A stretch of DNA of 33,599 nucleotides from Actinomycetota bacterium (GTDB lineage Bacteria; Actinomycetota; Acidimicrobiia; Acidimicrobiales; Ilumatobacteraceae): NCBI GenBank assembly GCA_009927665.1, contig RFMM01000083.1, positions 1-33,599 on the forward strand, written 5' to 3'. The notes under the pieces were generated by a model that was not told the DNA's origin, searched no databases, and was given only the letters and a program-made list of their open reading frames with translations. Position 1 is the stretch's first letter. Each line of letters begins with the position of its first letter. Below are positions 22,761 to 29,114 of the stretch, in pieces. Made by a program: the position numbers and the translations under genes.

Positions 22761-24304
22761 TCAGTCGAGGCCGTGCTCGGCGGCAGTGTCGCCGGTGCCC
22801 CACGGCATCGTGCCGCGACGCGTCGGCAAGCCCAACTTGCCAGGGTTGAAGATGTCAAGCGGGTCGAGCGATTGTTTCATTGCGACGAGCACAGCGAAGG
22901 CATCGCCCATCGCTTCGCGCATGAAGCGGCCGCGGTTGAGCCCCACACCGTGATGGTGGGCAAGGTTCGCGCCGGCAGAGAGTGCGGCACGTTGCGCGGC
23001 ATTCCACATCGCGAGATAGAGCCGCTCGTGTTCAGCCGTGGTCGCATCAGTGATGTCGCGCGACGAGAGTTGCCCCACGAAGGTGAAGTAGATGCAGGCA
23101 CCGTCGAGATAACTGTGCGAGACGTGCGCGCTCACGCTGCGCGCCCCGCTGACCGCCGAGGTCGCGGCAGCAACACTGGCATACGCATCGGTGAGTTTCG
23201 ACCACGGTGCAGCGACTTCCATCGTGTCGATGACGAAGCCTTTTTTGGTGAGTGCTTGCAGACCGCTCGTGTCGTTGCGATGGGCGAGCCAGTGGTCGAC
23301 ACGTTCGTCAGGCGCACGCACTGCGCCGTGGGCAAGCGCAAAACGATCGACAACGGCCAACGTCGCGGCGACGATTTCAGGCTCGCCATCATCGAGCACT
23401 ATCAGGGTGCTGTTGCTGCCGTCGCCACCATGACTGCGTTGCGCTTCGACTGCGTCGTAGAGCCGCAAGACGGCGGGTGTTGCGTGCGCGCGAATTGCTT
23501 CACGCATTGCGGCAATTCCATCGGCGAACGATGCGAAGAAGTACGCGGCCTTTCGTCGCACCGGTGCCACGTCGTGAGCACGCAGCCACACTCGGGTGAT
23601 GACGCCGAGAGTTCCCTCGCTGCCGATGAATATCGACGTCACGTCGGGGCCGTGGGCGGCGGCCGGTGCTCCGCCTGTGCGAATCACGCTGCCGTCGGCG
23701 AGCACCACCTCGAGGCCGACCACCATGTCGTGAATTTTTCCGTAACGAGTAGAGAACTGACCCGCGCCATGGCAGGCGACCCATCCGCCAACGGTGGAGA
23801 TGTCGAACGACTGTGGAAAGTGCCCGACCGTCAGCCCGTGTTCGTTTACCGCACGCTCGAGATCGGGGCCGAAGGTGCCGGGCAAACTTCGACGACGCCG
23901 GAAGTGCGGTCGACTGACACCACGCCCTGCAAGTGAGTCGTGTCGAGCACGACGCCGCCGAAGAGCGGCACCGATGCACCACTCACACCGCTGCGACCCG
24001 CCGTAACGGTGAGTGGTGTGTCGTGTCGCGCACAGGCGAGCACGATTCGTCGCACTTCGTCGGTGATGGAAGGTGTTGCGACAACTGATGGCAGTTGCGG
24101 CACCTGCGCCTGCAGCGCCCAACGCATGGCAAGCGGCCACCAGTCGCGGGCATGTTCGGCGAGGTCGGCCGCCGCGGTGCTGATCGGGCAGATAGAGCGC
24201 AGTTCGTCGACGAGTGCCGACGTGGGGCCAGCCTGCTTGGGCCCAGCCCAGCGCGAGCCAATCCGCCCTGCGCCGAAGTCGATCGGCGGTGTCGGCTGCG
24301 TCAC
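22761..24304 (-). pseudogene. FAD-linked oxidase, alkyl-DHAP-synthase-like, broken by a 1-nt frameshift
   Basis: Two ORFs in different frames together make one ~510-aa flavoprotein of the AgpS/GlcD type. The N-terminal part (start GTG 24304, VTQPTPPIDFGAGRIGS) carries the FAD loop LTVTAGRSGVSGASVPLFGGVVLD and runs to GVVEVC. The C-terminal part resumes at GTFGPDLERAVNEHGLTVGHFPQSFDIS and keeps the signature HHHGVGLNRG near its end. The break is at 23878-23883 (CCC on the coding strand); adding one base gives EVCAGTFGPDLE, the expected sequence. The rest shows no decay, so a sequencing error or very recent mutation is likely. It lies 32 nt after glpD. Similar flavoproteins sit near glpD in mycobacteria. 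Confidence 0.85.
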
Positions 24305-24336
24305 GCCACTTACTCTGTCACGCGCGGCCAGCGAGA

Positions 24337-25953
24337 TCAGCGGGCGGCGGCAACCTCGCGCTGGCAAATCTCTGAAAAATGCTGCACCTCGCGCGCGACG
24401 CGCTCGGCATTCCACCCAAGCTCGGGGGCGATGAGTTCGGCTACCTCAGCCGCAGCCCGCAAGGTGGCGTCACGGTCGTACAGCAACCCGCGGGTGCGAC
24501 GTGAGAGCACATCGTCGAGGGTGACCACCATCTCGTGGCGTGCCGAGTAGACCGCTTCAGCGCGCACGTAGGGAAGCCCAGCTACCAGCGGCGCGCCCAG
24601 CGACGGGTCGGCCGCGATAAGCGCACGAACTGCCTCCGCCTCGGTGCCGAATCGCGACACAAGATGCTCGTCACGGTTGCGCGAGGTGGCGCCAAACAAC
24701 TGCAGGCGCTTGGTCGAGCACCGACCGCGATGACTGAGCGCCTTCTGCACTTCATCGACCGTGTGTTCAGCCATCTTGCGATAGGTGGTGAGTTTTCCGC
24801 CGGTGATGGTGATCATGCCTGAATCGCTGACCATCACCTTGTGACGGCGCGACAAGTCGGCGGTGCGCCCTTTCGCCGCTGCTCCATCAGCCGAGACAAC
24901 GAGCGGGCGCAGACCCGCCCACGTGCCGACCACGTCGTCGCGCGTGATTGTGCGACCGCCGCCCGCGATTGCCTTGTTGAGCGCGCGCAGGCAGTAGTCG
25001 ATGTCTTCGGTGGTGCACTGTGGGTCGTCAATGCCGCCTTGGTAATCGGTGTCGGTGGTGCCAACGTAGGTGTAGCGGAACGTGCCGTCACCATTCGGCA
25101 TGTGTGGCACCACGAAGAGCGAACGCTTGTCACCCGGCACAGGGATGACGGCCGCAATGTCATTGCGCACGAGTTGCCACGGCACCGTGATGTGAATGCC
25201 CTTGGCGGGGCGAATCGTCACCGAGTCGCCACCAACATCCATGCGACGTAGCGCATCGCCCCACACGCCGGTGGCGTTCACCACGACGCGTGCCGAGATG
25301 TCGAAAGCTTCACCGTCGCGCGTCGCAACACTCGCGCCGACAATGTGGCCAGCGTCGTCTTTGCGCATCGCGGTGACGCCGCAATAGTTGGCGACGATTG
25401 CACCTCGTTCGATGGCCGAGCGAATGATGGCGAGGGTGAGGCGAGCGTCGTCGGCCTCGGCGTCGAAATAGAGGTATGCCGACGAGAGCTTGGTGGCATC
25501 CATCGTGGGCATATGTGCGAGGGCGGCCTTGGCGCGCAACCGGCGATGCAACTTGCCGACGCGCCAACCGCCCGTGAGGTCATACATCCACAACGCAGAG
25601 CCGAGCGCGCGGGCGATCTTGCGCGACACCACACCATCGCGGGTCATGACGGGGATCATGAACGGCAACGTCTTCACGAGATGTGGCGCGTTGCGCAAGA
25701 GTCGCTGGCGTTCGTAGAGAGCTTCATACACGAGCGCGATGTCGCCCTGCTGCAGGTAGCGCAGCCCACCGTGAATGAGCTTGCTGCTCTTCGATGACGT
25801 GCCAGATGCGAAGTCGGATTGGTCGACGAGCGCAACGCGCAAACCGCGGGCGGCGGCATCGAGCGCGACACCAGCCCCGGTGATACCACCGCCAACGACG
25901 AGCAGGTCGAAGGGCTCGCTGCGCAGTCGGCTGAGCATGGCGGCGCGCTTCAC
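24337..25953 (-). CDS. glpD: Glycerol-3-phosphate dehydrogenase, FAD-dependent
   Basis: Oxidises sn-glycerol-3-phosphate to DHAP and passes electrons to quinone at the membrane. 538 aa. LLVVGGGITGAGVALDAAARGL (FAD loop), SSKSSKLIHGGLRYLQQGD, FVVPHMPNGDGTFRYTYVGTTDTDY and ITGGKLTTYRKMAEHTVDE are family hallmarks, and DDVLSRRTRGLLYDRDA is the normal C-terminal segment. The track start at 26229 would cross the divergent fur gene. GTG 25953 has TAGGCT 7 nt upstream; the ATG at 25938 is the alternative. It heads an operon with the flavoprotein and FGGY kinase and is divergent from the PerR-like gene. Confidence 0.95.
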   Translation of the reverse strand: MKRAAMLSRLRSEPFDLLVVGGGITGAGVALDAAARGLRVALVDQSDFASGTSSKSSKLIHGGLRYLQQGDIALVYEALYERQRLLRNAPHLVKTLPFMIPVMTRDGVVSRKIARALGSALWMYDLTGGWRVGKLHRRLRAKAALAHMPTMDATKLSSAYLYFDAEADDARLTLAIIRSAIERGAIVANYCGVTAMRKDDAGHIVGASVATRDGEAFDISARVVVNATGVWGDALRRMDVGGDSVTIRPAKGIHITVPWQLVRNDIAAVIPVPGDKRSLFVVPHMPNGDGTFRYTYVGTTDTDYQGGIDDPQCTTEDIDYCLRALNKAIAGGGRTITRDDVVGTWAGLRPLVVSADGAAAKGRTADLSRRHKVMVSDSGMITITGGKLTTYRKMAEHTVDEVQKALSHRGRCSTKRLQLFGATSRNRDEHLVSRFGTEAEAVRALIAADPSLGAPLVAGLPYVRAEAVYSARHEMVVTLDDVLSRRTRGLLYDRDATLRAAAEVAELIAPELGWNAERVAREVQHFSEICQREVAAAR

Positions 25954-25960
25954 CGCGCAG

Positions 25961-25966
25961 AGCCTA
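25961..25966 (-). promoter_or_regulatory. Candidate -10 box for glpD (leaderless)
   Basis: Minus-strand TAGGCT is followed by 7 nt and the GTG at 25953, favouring that start over the ATG at 25938. Confidence 0.5.
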
Positions 25967-26025
25967 GAAGTGCGGGCCTGACGGTGCGGTGTGACGGCTG
26001 ACCGCCTCGACCTTGTCTGCATGAC

Positions 26026-26039
26026 TTGCAAATAAGCAA
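26026..26039. promoter_or_regulatory. AT-rich dyad, candidate Fur/PerR operator
   Basis: TTGCAAATAAGCAA is an imperfect palindrome (10 of 14 positions symmetric) inside an AT-rich patch that stands out in this GC-rich sequence. It spans about -37 to -24 from the inferred fur start site, where a repressor would block polymerase. No second copy was seen before rubrerythrin, which fits read-through from fur. Confidence 0.45.
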
Positions 26040-26049
26040 AACCAGCGAA

Positions 26050-26055
26050 TAGCGT
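26050..26055 (+). promoter_or_regulatory. Candidate -10 box for the PerR-like gene (leaderless)
   Basis: TAGCGT is followed by 7 nt and a GTG at 26063. The GTG at 26054 proposed by the ORF track lies inside this box and is therefore unlikely. Confidence 0.5.
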
Positions 26056-26062
26056 GCCCGGT

Positions 26063-26578
26063 GTGCAAGCCCCCGAACTCGTCGCCGCCAAGTATCGCGC
26101 GCAAGGTCGTCGCCTCACGCCGCAGCGACAACTGATTTTTTCGCTGTTGCACGACAACGCCACCCACCCGACCGCTGATGCACTGTTTGCGGTGGCGAGC
26201 AAACGAATGCCCGGCATCTCGCTGCGCACGGTGTATCAAACGCTCGATGAACTCTCGGAGATGGGCGAAATTCAGCTCATGCGCTGCGACGGTGGCGCAC
26301 TACGGTTCGACCCGAACGTCGATGATCACCATCATGCGCTTGATGCCGCGACGGGGGAGGTGTTCGACGTGTACGTCGACAATCTCGATGCATTGCGTGC
26401 GCAACTGCCCGAGGGTTTCGAGGTCGAAAACGTGAGCATCGTCTTTCACGGTCGAGTCGCTAAGGGCAACTCGGCGCGCAGCACAAGTTCAACCAAGTCT
26501 CCCGCTCGGCAGCAAACCGGGCGGGCGAAGTCCACGAAGCGCGCGCCACGGCGCACGAGTCGCGGATCATCCCAATAA
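26063..26578 (+). CDS. Fur-family regulator, PerR-like, without structural zinc cysteines
   Basis: DNA-binding metalloregulator, 171 aa from GTG 26063. The winged helix is RLTPQRQLIFSLLHDN ... GISLRTVYQTLDELSEMGEIQ. Residues matching the B. subtilis PerR regulatory site are present: His in ATHPTAD, Asp in LRFDP, HHH, and Asp in EVFDVYV; Asp rather than Glu at the last position is the PerR-type feature. Both CxxC zinc motifs are missing (HHHALDAATGEVFD; FHGRVAKGN). The last ~35 residues are a Lys/Arg/Ser/Thr-rich basic tail, which may add DNA binding. It is followed 24 nt later by rubrerythrin, a classic PerR target. Peroxide-responsive repression is inferred. Confidence 0.85.
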   Translation: MQAPELVAAKYRAQGRRLTPQRQLIFSLLHDNATHPTADALFAVASKRMPGISLRTVYQTLDELSEMGEIQLMRCDGGALRFDPNVDDHHHALDAATGEVFDVYVDNLDALRAQLPEGFEVENVSIVFHGRVAKGNSARSTSSTKSPARQQTGRAKSTKRAPRRTSRGSSQ

Positions 26579-26602
26579 CCCACCAACCAAGGAGAAACAC
26601 TC

Positions 26603-27022
26603 ATGGCCAAGTTGCACGGCACCAAGACACATGAGAACCTCAAGGAAGCGTTTGCTGGCGAGAGCCAGGCCAACCGCCGCTACTTGTGGTTCGCCCAGAA
26701 GGCCGACGTCGAGGGCTACCCCGACGCCGCTGCATTGTTCCGTTCAGTCGCCGAAGGCGAAACCGGACACGCACACGGCCACCTCGATTACCTGGCCGAA
26801 GTTGGCGACCCCGCCAGCGGCGAGCCGATCGGTGACACCGAGCAGAACCTGAAGGCGTCGATCGCCGGCGAGACCTACGAGTACACCCAGATGTACCCGG
26901 GCTTTGCCAAGACCGCACGCGACGAAGGCTTCGCCGAAATCGCCGACTGGTTCGAGACGCTCGCACGCGCCGAAAAGAGCCACGCCGGACGCTTCACCGA
27001 GGGTCTCAAGACCGTCGGCTGA
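26603..27022 (+). CDS. Rubrerythrin, short form without rubredoxin domain
   Basis: Di-iron peroxidase of the ferritin-like superfamily, 139 aa. Two half-repeats each carry Glu and ExxH ligands: [18 protein letters not shown] with [12 protein letters not shown], and [15 protein letters not shown] with [11 protein letters not shown]. The C-terminal rubredoxin FeS4 domain of classical rubrerythrins is absent, as in sulerythrin-type proteins, so electrons must come from a separate donor. AAGGAG lies 8 nt before the ATG. Lying behind a PerR-like gene and ahead of an Fe-S protein, it is probably the peroxide-reducing member of the module, with the Fe-S protein a candidate partner. Confidence 0.93.
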
Positions 27023-27061
27023 TTCGCCCAGCGAATCTCACCGCAATAACCTCCGCGGGTA

Positions 27062-27113
27062 GCGGCCCGGGCGATTGTTGACCGAGATGGTTGACGACAT
27101 CGACCCGGGTCGC
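27062..27113 (+). other. Intercistronic GC stem between rubrerythrin and the Fe-S gene
   Basis: GCGGCCCGGG can pair over 10 bp (one G-U) with CCCGGGTCGC across a 32-nt loop. There is no T-run. It may lower read-through, protect the upstream message, or be incidental in this GC-rich gap of 123 nt. Confidence 0.35.
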
Positions 27114-27145
27114 GCCCCGGAAACCTGCATGAACACGGAAACGAA

Positions 27146-28447
27146 ATGACCACTACCTACGATCCACATCACCCGCTGTATCTCGACGAAGCCGACACAC
27201 GCGCCGAGCTAGAGCGCGTCTACGACTTGTGCCACGGGTGTCGCCTGTGCTTCAAATTTTGTCCGTCGTTTCCGACCCTTTTTGACTACATCGACCAGCA
27301 CGACGATCAAGACGCGGGCAAGATGACGCCCGCACAGCAAGACCACGTGATTGACGAATGCTTCCAGTGCAAGTTGTGTTACATCAACTGCCCGTACATT
27401 CCGGGTCAGCACGAATGGGCGCTCGATTTTCCGCGACTGATGCTGCGCGCCGACGCGATGCGTCGCGCCAACGGTCAAGTGACGTTGCGAGACAAGGTGA
27501 CCACGACGGTGATGGGCAACACTGACGCAATCGGCAAGGTGTCGGTGGCGACGGTGAAACTCACCAACAAGGTGATGGGCGCCAAGCCTGGCTCGCTCAT
27601 TCGCAAAGTGGTGGAAAAGACCGCCGGCATCTCGAGTGTGCGACTCTTGCCGAAGTTTGCGCGTACGCGATTCTCGTCGTGGTTCAAGCAACGGCCCAAG
27701 GTGCGCGTCGGCAAGAAGCAGGGCAGTGTCACCGTGTTCCCGACCTGCCTCGTCGAATACCAAGAGCCGGCCATTGGCAAAGCGCTGGTCAAGGTCTATG
27801 AACACAACGGCATCGAGTGCTCGCTGACCGACGCCGGTTGCTGTGGTGCTCCGTTCTTGCACAGTGGCGACATGGCGGCATTCACCAAGGTGGCGGTCGA
27901 CAACGTGGCGATGCTTGCCGCCGAAGTGCGCAAAGGCAACGACATCGTGGTGCCCCAGCCCACGTGCAGCTACGTGCTGAAAAAGGACTATCTCGACTAC
28001 GTCGGTGGCCCAGATGCGCAACTCGTGTCAGAGCACACCTTCGACGCAGCCGAATACCTCATGAAGGTGCACAAGACCGAGGGTTCGTCACTCGACACGC
28101 AGTTCCCCGGTGAAGTGCCCGAGACGATCACGTATCACACGCCGTGCCACTTGCGCGCGCAGAACATCGGCTTGAAGAGCCGCGACCTCATGAAGTTGAC
28201 CGGTGCAAAGATCAAGCTCGTGCAGCAATGCTCGGGCATCGACGGAATGTGGGGCTTGCGCGCCGAAAACGCCGAGCTCAGTATTCCGATCGGCAAGAAA
28301 CTCGGTGAGATGGTGCAGGCCGCCGACGGCGACGTCGTGGCGGGCGACTGCCACCTGGCAAACACCGCAATCACCGAGCAAACCGGCGATTCACCACTGC
28401 ACCCGCTGCAGGTGGTCGCCAAGGCCTACGGGCTCGATACCGAGTAA
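27146..28447 (+). CDS. Fe-S oxidoreductase, GlpC/HdrB-like (two 4Fe-4S plus CCG domains)
   Basis: 433-aa electron-transfer subunit. The N-terminus has two 4Fe-4S motifs, CHGCRLCFKFCP and CFQCKLCYINCP. The C-terminal half has two cysteine-rich CCG-type modules: FPTCLVEYQEP with DAGCCGAPF, and YHTPCHLRAQNIG with QQCSGIDGMWG, where one Cys of the usual CCG is Ser. No membrane segment is seen. Related proteins pass electrons in glycerol-3-phosphate, glycolate and heterodisulfide systems. Its place between rubrerythrin and DUF3501 matches a recurring three-gene cluster, so a role as electron donor in peroxide reduction is inferred. A 6-codon ORF (MNTETK) overlaps its ATG. Confidence 0.9.
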   Translation: MTTTYDPHHPLYLDEADTRAELERVYDLCHGCRLCFKFCPSFPTLFDYIDQHDDQDAGKMTPAQQDHVIDECFQCKLCYINCPYIPGQHEWALDFPRLMLRADAMRRANGQVTLRDKVTTTVMGNTDAIGKVSVATVKLTNKVMGAKPGSLIRKVVEKTAGISSVRLLPKFARTRFSSWFKQRPKVRVGKKQGSVTVFPTCLVEYQEPAIGKALVKVYEHNGIECSLTDAGCCGAPFLHSGDMAAFTKVAVDNVAMLAAEVRKGNDIVVPQPTCSYVLKKDYLDYVGGPDAQLVSEHTFDAAEYLMKVHKTEGSSLDTQFPGEVPETITYHTPCHLRAQNIGLKSRDLMKLTGAKIKLVQQCSGIDGMWGLRAENAELSIPIGKKLGEMVQAADGDVVAGDCHLANTAITEQTGDSPLHPLQVVAKAYGLDTE

Positions 28448-28502
28448 TCACCCCAGCAAGTACAACCCCCAACAACACCCCAACAACAAGGAGACACCCC
28501 CG

Positions 28503-29114
28503 ATGTCGACCATGACCAGCAAACGCAAGCTCACCCTCAACGACATTCTCGACCACCGCGCATATGAGCGTGTGCGCGAAGAGCGTCGCAACGAGATCAT
28601 CGAAGTGAAGCGTCGCCGTCGCCTGCACCTCGGCACCGTCGTGACGGTTGCCTTCGAGAATCGCGCGACGATGCACAACCAGATTCAAGAGATGCTGCGC
28701 GTCGAGCGCACCGTCACCGACGAAGGCGTGATGGAAGAACTGCGCGCCTACAACCCGATGATTCCCGAGCCCGGTCAGTTGTGCGCGACGCTCTTCATCG
28801 AGTTGACCAGTGAAGATCAGATGCGCGAGTGGCTGCCCAAATTGGTCGGCATCGAGAAGTCGCTCGTCATCGTGCTCGCCGACGGAAGCAGCGTTCGTTG
28901 CACCGTCGACGAACAGCACGCCGAAGGCCTCACTCGCGAGACGGTGACGGCAGCGGTGCATTACGTGCGATTCGACTTCACTGCTGCCCAGATCGAAACG
29001 TTCGCGAAGGGCGGCGTGCAGTTGCGCTGCGACTTGTCGAATTATCTCGAGGCGATCGAATTGCCAGACTTCACTGTGACCGAGCTGCTCACCGACCTGC
29101 GCGACGACGCGTAG
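28503..29114 (+). CDS. DUF3501 family protein
   Basis: 203-aa cytoplasmic protein of unknown function. The family pattern is clear: KLTLNDILDHRAYERVREERRNEIIEVKRRRRLHLG, then FENRATMHNQIQEMLRVERT, EELRAYNPMIPEPGQLCATLFIEL. There is no cysteine cluster or membrane segment. The track start at 28203 runs inside the Fe-S gene in another frame; ATG 28503 has AAGGAG 9 nt upstream, preceded by an almost G-free CA-rich leader. Families named DUF3501 commonly sit beside rubrerythrin and this type of Fe-S protein, so it is likely the third partner of a redox module. Its reaction is not known. Confidence 0.9.
   Translation: MSTMTSKRKLTLNDILDHRAYERVREERRNEIIEVKRRRRLHLGTVVTVAFENRATMHNQIQEMLRVERTVTDEGVMEELRAYNPMIPEPGQLCATLFIELTSEDQMREWLPKLVGIEKSLVIVLADGSSVRCTVDEQHAEGLTRETVTAAVHYVRFDFTAAQIETFAKGGVQLRCDLSNYLEAIELPDFTVTELLTDLRDDA

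What the first reader, a model, noticed from the sequence alone, without database searches (positions are those of the whole stretch)
26026..29114. PerR-like/rubrerythrin/Fe-S/DUF3501 block as a peroxide-defence module with an uncharacterised member
A Fur-family regulator with PerR-type site residues leads a rubrerythrin lacking its rubredoxin domain, a GlpC/HdrB-like Fe-S protein and a DUF3501 protein. A rubredoxin-less rubrerythrin needs an electron donor, and the Fe-S protein is the natural candidate, with DUF3501 as adaptor or catalytic partner. The trio recurs in other genomes to my knowledge, but its mechanism is not established. This is the best candidate for an undescribed system here.
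Basis: partly seen in the sequence, partly recalled or inferred. Interest (0 to 1): 0.75.

Follow-up and report, generated by a model that had tools for sequence, protein, structure and literature searches.

The report
Peroxide-sensing rubrerythrin operon with DUF3501
This is a peroxide-defence operon of a kind already described in 2016 (rubrerythrin plus an Fe-S protein plus the unknown protein DUF3501), here led by a PerR-like peroxide switch; comparing relatives shows that DUF3501 usually stays with the rubrerythrin even when the Fe-S protein is lost, which changes the likely division of labour.

Summary
Window 26054-29114 encodes a PerR-like Fur protein, a rubrerythrin without rubredoxin domain, a GlpC/HdrB-like Fe-S protein and DUF3501, in an Acidimicrobiia genome with no other Fur protein and no rubredoxin found. 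It is not an undescribed system. It is the 'aerobic-type rubrerythrin' cluster (RBR-RFO-DUF3501) of Cardenas et al. 2016 (PMC5114695). The Sulfolobus cluster is H2O2-induced (PMC2739297).

New here: (1) DUF3501 goes with RBR in 47 of 47 DUF3501+ genomes of the class. (2) RFO presence changed at least five times (up to 16) on the DUF3501 tree, most likely by loss, while RBR and DUF3501 stayed; 13 such genomes have no RFO anywhere. RFO is therefore not an obligatory donor, nor DUF3501 merely its adaptor. (3) The Fur proteins keep all five PerR metal ligands, and a 7-1-7 palindrome sits before fur. (4) A strong RNA hairpin follows rbr, but not the other gaps. (5) DUF3501 has one solved relative (3FJV), no other fold match and no conserved cysteine. 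Solo paralogues sit beside malate synthase in Burkholderiales.

Best reading: peroxide-induced RBR peroxidase; RFO an optional electron feed; DUF3501 a non-redox RBR partner of unproven function.

The parts
26017..26031 (+). candidate PerR-type operator, 7-1-7 inverted repeat CTGCATGACTTGCAA, ending 22 bases before the fur start codon
   Evidence: 10 of 14 matches to TTGCAATNATTGCAA; in 71 upstream regions 19 reach 10 or more matches against 2.9 in shuffles (the pattern was drawn from some of the same sequences). Model-free: perfect 7-1-7 palindromes in 12 of 71 in the bin next to fur, against 1, 0, 0, 0 in four other bins. The window's own copy is imperfect (5 of 7 pairs).
26054..26578 (+). 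Fur-family regulator, PerR-like (GTG start)
   Evidence: PF01475 73 bits; ligands HDHHD conserved in 74-76 of 76 cluster-linked Fur proteins; nearest solved structures 5nl9 and B. subtilis PerR 2fe3; only Fur-family gene found in the genome
26603..27022 (+). single-domain (aerobic-type) rubrerythrin, no rubredoxin domain
   Evidence: PF02915; E20, E53, H56, E90, E93, E124, H127 invariant in the survey apart from one gapped row; closest solved: 4di0 (E 3e-64) and sulerythrin 1j30 (4e-57), against 1b71 two-domain rubrerythrin 4e-25
27023..27145 (+). strong RNA hairpin after rubrerythrin, candidate attenuator or 3'-end stabiliser
   Evidence: window gap z = -5.7, -60 kcal/mol; post-RBR gaps median z -3.0 (33 of 69 below -3), against 0.3 and 0.2 in the other two gaps
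27146..28447 (+). RFO: GlpC/HdrB-like Fe-S protein (two 4Fe-4S ferredoxin motifs, two CCG-type regions, the second one cysteine short)
   Evidence: PF02754, Fer4; conserved Cys 29/32/35/39, 72/75/78/82, 201/232/233/274, 334/362/402; fold of a relative matches LutA, mycobacterial EtfD, HdrB; below the GlpC cut-off (238 of 278 bits)
28503..29114 (+). DUF3501 protein
   Evidence: PF12007 196 bits; model pLDDT 94.5, only fold match 3FJV, TM 0.86-0.90

Best explanation
A peroxide-induced operon. The Fur protein works as PerR: with Fe(II) bound at its His/Asp site it represses its own operon at the palindrome before fur, and peroxide oxidation releases it. The operon makes much rubrerythrin and, past a hairpin, smaller amounts of RFO and DUF3501. 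Rubrerythrin reduces H2O2 to water at its di-iron site. Where RFO is present, as here, it feeds electrons to rubrerythrin, most likely from the quinol pool or a flavoprotein, as its LutA/EtfD/HdrB-type fold suggests. Where RFO is absent, another donor such as FNR or ferredoxin must serve. DUF3501 carries no redox centre of its own; it is a rubrerythrin-specific helper (assembly or repair of the di-iron site, or a docking surface that more than one donor can use). Shown here: gene content, conservation, co-inheritance, repeated changes in RFO presence, palindrome and hairpin. Inferred: peroxide sensing, electron route, DUF3501 role, lower expression of RFO and DUF3501.
For: Five PerR ligands near-invariant in 76 linked Fur proteins; positional palindrome; di-iron ligands invariant; no rubredoxin in 8 genomes tested, control positive in 7 of 14; 47 of 47 DUF3501+ genomes of the class have rubrerythrin; 114 of 122 loci have RBR beside DUF3501 and the other 8 end at contig ends; RFO missing with RBR and DUF3501 kept, including a 50-aa RFO remnant in place (L086); Fur retained in 21 of 24 RFO-less loci; hairpin only after rbr; H2O2 induction of the Sulfolobus cluster with its glpC-like gene (5.2-fold); loss of a rubrerythrin of this lineage abolishes aerobic growth and raises H2O2 sensitivity in Hydrogenobacter.
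Against: No experiment on this operon or on any DUF3501. One genome of the window's own family (G039, 98% complete) has RBR and RFO but no DUF3501, so DUF3501 is not absolutely required. Solo DUF3501 paralogues exist away from rubrerythrin. The RFO-DUF3501 fusion (L189) argues for some functional tie between those two. The Fur protein falls below every NCBIfam PerR cut-off and lacks the PerR structural-zinc cysteines.
Confidence: 0.6

Rival explanations
1. The first reader's and Cardenas et al.'s model: RFO is the dedicated electron donor replacing the rubredoxin domain, and DUF3501 is its adaptor to rubrerythrin.
For: RFO beside RBR in 89 of 115 loci of the tree and all 29 Burkholderiales trio loci examined; natural RFO-DUF3501 fusion (L189; also Nitrosomonas); redox-protein fold; no rubredoxin found in the genome.
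Against: RFO state changed at least 5 and up to 16 times with DUF3501 kept, and RFO is absent genome-wide in 13 such genomes; Thermoproteales have RBR and DUF3501 without RFO; FNR alone serves a homologous RBR in vitro; the fusion model gives no confident domain packing (pTM 0.69).
Confidence: 0.25
2. The Fe-S protein is a GlpC serving the neighbouring glycerol-3-phosphate dehydrogenase (divergent gene at 24337-26145), and only happens to lie next to rubrerythrin.
For: GlpC is the closest named family; a glycerol-3-phosphate dehydrogenase-like gene is the divergent neighbour in 38 loci.
Against: Below the GlpC cut-off; the dehydrogenase stays in 11 RFO-less loci; RFO lies next to rubrerythrin in phyla without that neighbour, and inside an H2O2-induced cluster in Sulfolobus.
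Confidence: 0.04
3. The module handles iron (ferroxidase or iron storage under a Fur-type iron sensor) rather than peroxide.
For: Regulator is of the Fur family; rubrerythrins belong to the ferritin-like superfamily; IrrA is the best-scoring NCBIfam Fur model, far below its cut-off.
Against: PerR-type Asp at position 105 invariant in 76 of 76; rubrerythrin of this lineage is a peroxidase in vitro and protects against H2O2 in vivo; cluster induced by H2O2 in Sulfolobus.
Confidence: 0.1

Closest known systems
Aerobic-type rubrerythrin system RBR-RFO-DUF3501 (Cardenas, Quatrini and Holmes 2016, PMC5114695)
   Same: Same three genes, same lack of a rubredoxin domain, same co-localisation; Actinobacteria (Acidithrix, Ferrimicrobium) were already in their tree.
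   Different: The sections read do not mention the PerR-like leader, the palindrome, the hairpin after rbr, repeated RFO loss in Acidimicrobiia, or solo DUF3501 by malate synthase (one solo gene, in Azoarcus, is reported).
Ferriperoxin of Hydrogenobacter thermophilus (PMC3317640) and sulerythrin of Sulfolobus tokodaii (1J30)
   Same: Single-domain rubrerythrins of the same lineage; ferriperoxin is a peroxidase needed for aerobic growth.
   Different: Ferriperoxin was driven by NADPH and FNR in vitro; no test of RFO or DUF3501 was seen in the passages read.
PerR of Bacillus subtilis (2FE3) and Fur-family regulator 5NL9
   Same: Aligns along the whole domain with both; all five regulatory metal ligands of B. 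subtilis PerR are kept.
   Different: Only one cysteine (Cys78), so no four-cysteine structural zinc site of the B. subtilis type.
GlpC, LutA, EtfD, HdrB (CCG-domain Fe-S proteins)
   Same: Ferredoxin motifs and CCG-type domains; fold match to LutA, EtfD and HdrB.
   Different: Second CCG motif is CSG (one cysteine short); linked to rubrerythrin instead of a dehydrogenase or reductase complex.
PDB 3FJV, Burkholderia pseudomallei protein of unknown function
   Same: DUF3501 fold, TM 0.86-0.90 to the window model.
   Different: No function known; nothing else in the PDB resembles it convincingly.

Membership tests
Aerobic-type rubrerythrin system (RBR-RFO-DUF3501) | Rubrerythrin without rubredoxin domain, nearer to sulerythrin and B. 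pseudomallei RBR than to two-domain forms | tested here: met
   139 aa, PF02915; 4di0 3e-64 and 1j30 4e-57 against 1b71 4e-25
Aerobic-type rubrerythrin system (RBR-RFO-DUF3501) | Co-localised DUF3501 (PF12007) | tested here: met
   196 bits, 28503-29114
Aerobic-type rubrerythrin system (RBR-RFO-DUF3501) | Co-localised COG0247-type Fe-S protein with CCG domain | tested here: met
   PF02754 and Fer4, conserved cysteines
Aerobic-type rubrerythrin system (RBR-RFO-DUF3501) | Peroxidase activity in vivo or in vitro | not testable with these tools
   Known for the relative ferriperoxin
PerR (peroxide-sensing Fur family) | Five regulatory metal ligands H37, D85, H91, H93, D104 | tested here: met
   H38, D86, H92, H94, D105; 74-76 of 76 relatives
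PerR (peroxide-sensing Fur family) | Structural zinc site of four cysteines (B. subtilis type) | tested here: not met
   Single Cys at 78
PerR (peroxide-sensing Fur family) | Score above an NCBIfam PerR equivalog cut-off | tested here: not met
   69.6 bits against a cut-off of 180; hence 'PerR-like', not filed as PerR
PerR (peroxide-sensing Fur family) | 7-1-7 operator before a target gene | tested here: inconclusive
   Enriched by position across relatives, but the window's own site is imperfect
GlpC (anaerobic glycerol-3-phosphate dehydrogenase subunit C) | Score above the GlpC cut-off | tested here: not met
   237.9 of 278 and 166.4 of 279.9 bits
Classical two-domain rubrerythrin | C-terminal rubredoxin domain / RuberyRbr equivalog cut-off | tested here: not met
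   128.9 of 200 bits, profile matched only to position 142 of 194

The most novel reading that the evidence does not exclude
DUF3501 is the near-obligate, non-redox partner of single-domain rubrerythrins (di-iron assembly or repair factor, or universal docking surface), while the Fe-S electron donor is an exchangeable add-on. This differs from the published emphasis on the Fe-S protein as the replacement for the rubredoxin domain.
Probability: 0.45. Interest if true: 0.55.

Novelty: new member of a known kind. Interest (0 to 1): 0.38.

Why it matters
Rubrerythrins without rubredoxin protect many aerobes and, in some protists, apparently mitochondria (PMC7050145), yet how they get electrons and what DUF3501 does are open questions. 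The repeated natural absence of the Fe-S gene with rubrerythrin and DUF3501 kept turns these into a direct test: compare closely related organisms with and without RFO, and reconstitute rubrerythrin with DUF3501 alone.

Tried and rejected
(1) Residue changes in DUF3501, RBR and Fur that follow RFO loss: the best hits (RBR K8 to Q) look clade-bound; no contact surface claimed. (2) RFO-DUF3501 interface from the natural fusion L189, aligned with same-frame neighbouring genes read through their stops: the domains fold well (pLDDT 89) but pTM 0.69 and no error matrix give no evidence on packing. An earlier alignment was discarded because DUF3501 rows aligned to the RFO N-terminus. (3) Fold search of DUF3501 for a functional analogue: only 3FJV; the next best has TM about 0.25. 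(4) A replacement donor gene in RFO-less loci: no neighbour family convincingly enriched (smallest p 0.003 among many families tested). (5) RFO as partner of the divergent glycerol-3-phosphate dehydrogenase: rejected. (6) Apparent RBR genomes without DUF3501: G021 and G131 end at contig ends in or just after RFO, and the G096 cluster is split over two contigs; only G039 is real.
Full report
WHAT IS THERE. Four co-directional genes: Fur family (26054-26578), rubrerythrin without rubredoxin domain (26603-27022), GlpC/HdrB-like Fe-S protein (27146-28447), DUF3501 (28503-29114). The window is contig C255 of a 1.77 Mb, 91% complete genome. Its nearest DUF3501 relatives are Ilumatobacteraceae and other Acidimicrobiia. 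The Fur gene is the only one found in the genome. No rubredoxin was found in this genome or in seven relatives, while the same search rang in 7 of 14 control genomes.

IT IS A KNOWN SYSTEM. Cardenas, Quatrini and Holmes (2016, PMC5114695) described exactly this trio as the 'aerobic-type' rubrerythrin lineage, named the Fe-S protein RFO, reported triple co-occurrence in 185 genomes and an RFO-DUF3501 fusion in Nitrosomonas, and proposed RFO as the electron-transfer replacement for the rubredoxin domain. The trio also occurs in eukaryotes with predicted mitochondrial targeting (PMC7050145). In Sulfolobus solfataricus the glpC-like gene SSO2643 (5.2-fold) and its neighbours SSO2644 and SSO2645 are H2O2-induced, and rubrerythrin SSO2642 is reported as up-regulated too (PMC2739297). 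A relative, ferriperoxin, is an NADPH-FNR-dependent peroxidase; its disruption abolishes growth at 10% O2 and sensitises to H2O2 (PMC3317640). No paper found assigns DUF3501 a function.

In the class, 47 of 148 genomes carry DUF3501 and all 47 carry this rubrerythrin. Of 50 genomes with a rubrerythrin above 200 bits, three lack DUF3501: two are contigs ending within or just after RFO, and one (G039) is real. In the wider phylum it is rare (9 of 247). In the order of a Burkholderiales genome 100 of 200 have it. Of 122 loci from the class, genome contigs and plasmids, 114 have rubrerythrin on the same strand next to DUF3501; the other eight end at contig ends. All 29 trio-type Burkholderiales loci inspected read RBR-RFO-DUF3501.

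RFO IS OPTIONAL. 26 of 115 classified loci have rubrerythrin and DUF3501 without RFO. In 13 such genomes a whole-genome search with the window RFO finds only remote CCG proteins (88 bits or less), whereas RFO+ controls score 614-1012. On a DUF3501 tree the RFO state needs 16 changes, at least 5 forced by well-supported branches, with RFO+ and RFO- sisters such as L095/L105 and L065/L060 (quick tree, SH-aLRT support only). Locus L086 still has the first 50 or so codons of RFO, ferredoxin motif included, between rubrerythrin and DUF3501 (a misassembly cannot be excluded for one locus). The parsimony count cannot itself tell loss from gain, but the conserved order with RFO between the other two, and the L086 remnant, favour loss. 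The reverse, RFO kept and DUF3501 missing, was seen once.

THE REGULATOR. The Fur proteins linked to the cluster keep the PerR ligands H, D, H, H, D in 76, 74, 76, 76 and 76 of 76, including Nitrospira, Nitrospinota, Rokubacteria and a proteobacterium. Fur leads 45 of 53 RFO+ and 21 of 24 RFO- non-redundant Acidimicrobiia loci, so it goes with rubrerythrin and not with RFO. A 7-1-7 palindrome, CAACAATNATTGTTG or a GCA/TGC variant, lies just before fur: perfect palindromes in 12 of 71 in that bin, against 1, 0, 0, 0 elsewhere. The window copy (CTGCATGACTTGCAA, 26017-26031) is of the second type and imperfect.

THE HAIRPIN. The gap after rubrerythrin folds unusually well: median z -3.0 (n = 69) before RFO and -2.3 (n = 23) before DUF3501 in RFO-less loci, against 0.3 (RFO-DUF3501 gap) and 0.2 (fur-rbr gap); the window gap has z = -5.7. 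Sequences differ between species. This looks like a 3'-end or attenuation element that would make rubrerythrin in excess over RFO and DUF3501. That is inference.

THE PARTS. Rubrerythrin: E20, E53, H56, E90, E93, E124 and H127 are invariant apart from one row with a gap at the last four. RFO: eight cysteines for two ferredoxin-type clusters, four (C201, C232, C233, C274) in the first CCG region and three (C334, C362, C402) in the second, where CCG reads CSG; the fold resembles LutA, mycobacterial EtfD and HdrB, proteins that pass electrons to or from quinones, flavins or disulfides (own knowledge), hence the proposed quinol or flavoprotein source. DUF3501: confident model (pLDDT 94.5), only 3FJV similar, invariant Y21, R39, F51, Q60, E63, V152, D198, and no cysteine among the conserved positions, so it is unlikely to carry electrons itself.

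SOLO DUF3501. Five Burkholderiales genomes with the trio also hold a second, solitary DUF3501 gene. Four of these lie between malate synthase and an aminotransferase (L192, L194, L196, L198) and one elsewhere (L200). The conserved core is kept. This is the main hint that DUF3501 may act on something besides rubrerythrin.

VERDICT. Real, coherent, and already described as a gene cluster; the mechanism remains open. The evidence moves DUF3501 from 'adaptor of the Fe-S donor' towards 'partner of rubrerythrin', and the Fe-S protein towards 'optional donor'. All of this is comparative; nothing here measures activity.

Noticed in passing
L192:5048-5710, L194:4920-5582, L196:5031-5702, L198:4550-5158: Solitary DUF3501 paralogue between malate synthase and a class I/II aminotransferase, conserved in four Burkholderiales genomes that also have the full trio; no rubrerythrin or RFO nearby.
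   Followed up: partly
window 27023-27145 and the same gap in relatives: Strong RNA hairpin directly after rubrerythrin, conserved in position but not sequence, absent from the other two gaps of the operon.
   Followed up: yes
L086:1329-1487: Truncated RFO (about 50 codons including the first ferredoxin motif) between intact rubrerythrin and DUF3501, apparently a recent in-place deletion.
   Followed up: partly
L201:5084-6804 (genome G039, same family as the window): Rubrerythrin and RFO present but no DUF3501 and no linked Fur: the only clear exception in the class sample.
   Followed up: partly
window 22761-26145, minus strand: Divergent glycerol-3-phosphate dehydrogenase-like gene followed by a FAD-linked oxidase gene; the dehydrogenase is the conserved divergent neighbour in 38 loci, with or without RFO.
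   Followed up: partly
L079, L080, L085: Contigs titled 'Bifidobacterium breve' carry Acidimicrobiia-type clusters; the record titles look wrong.
   Followed up: no
L189:3627-5603: RFO and DUF3501 fused in one 659-residue frame in a Burkholderiales-order genome.
   Followed up: partly
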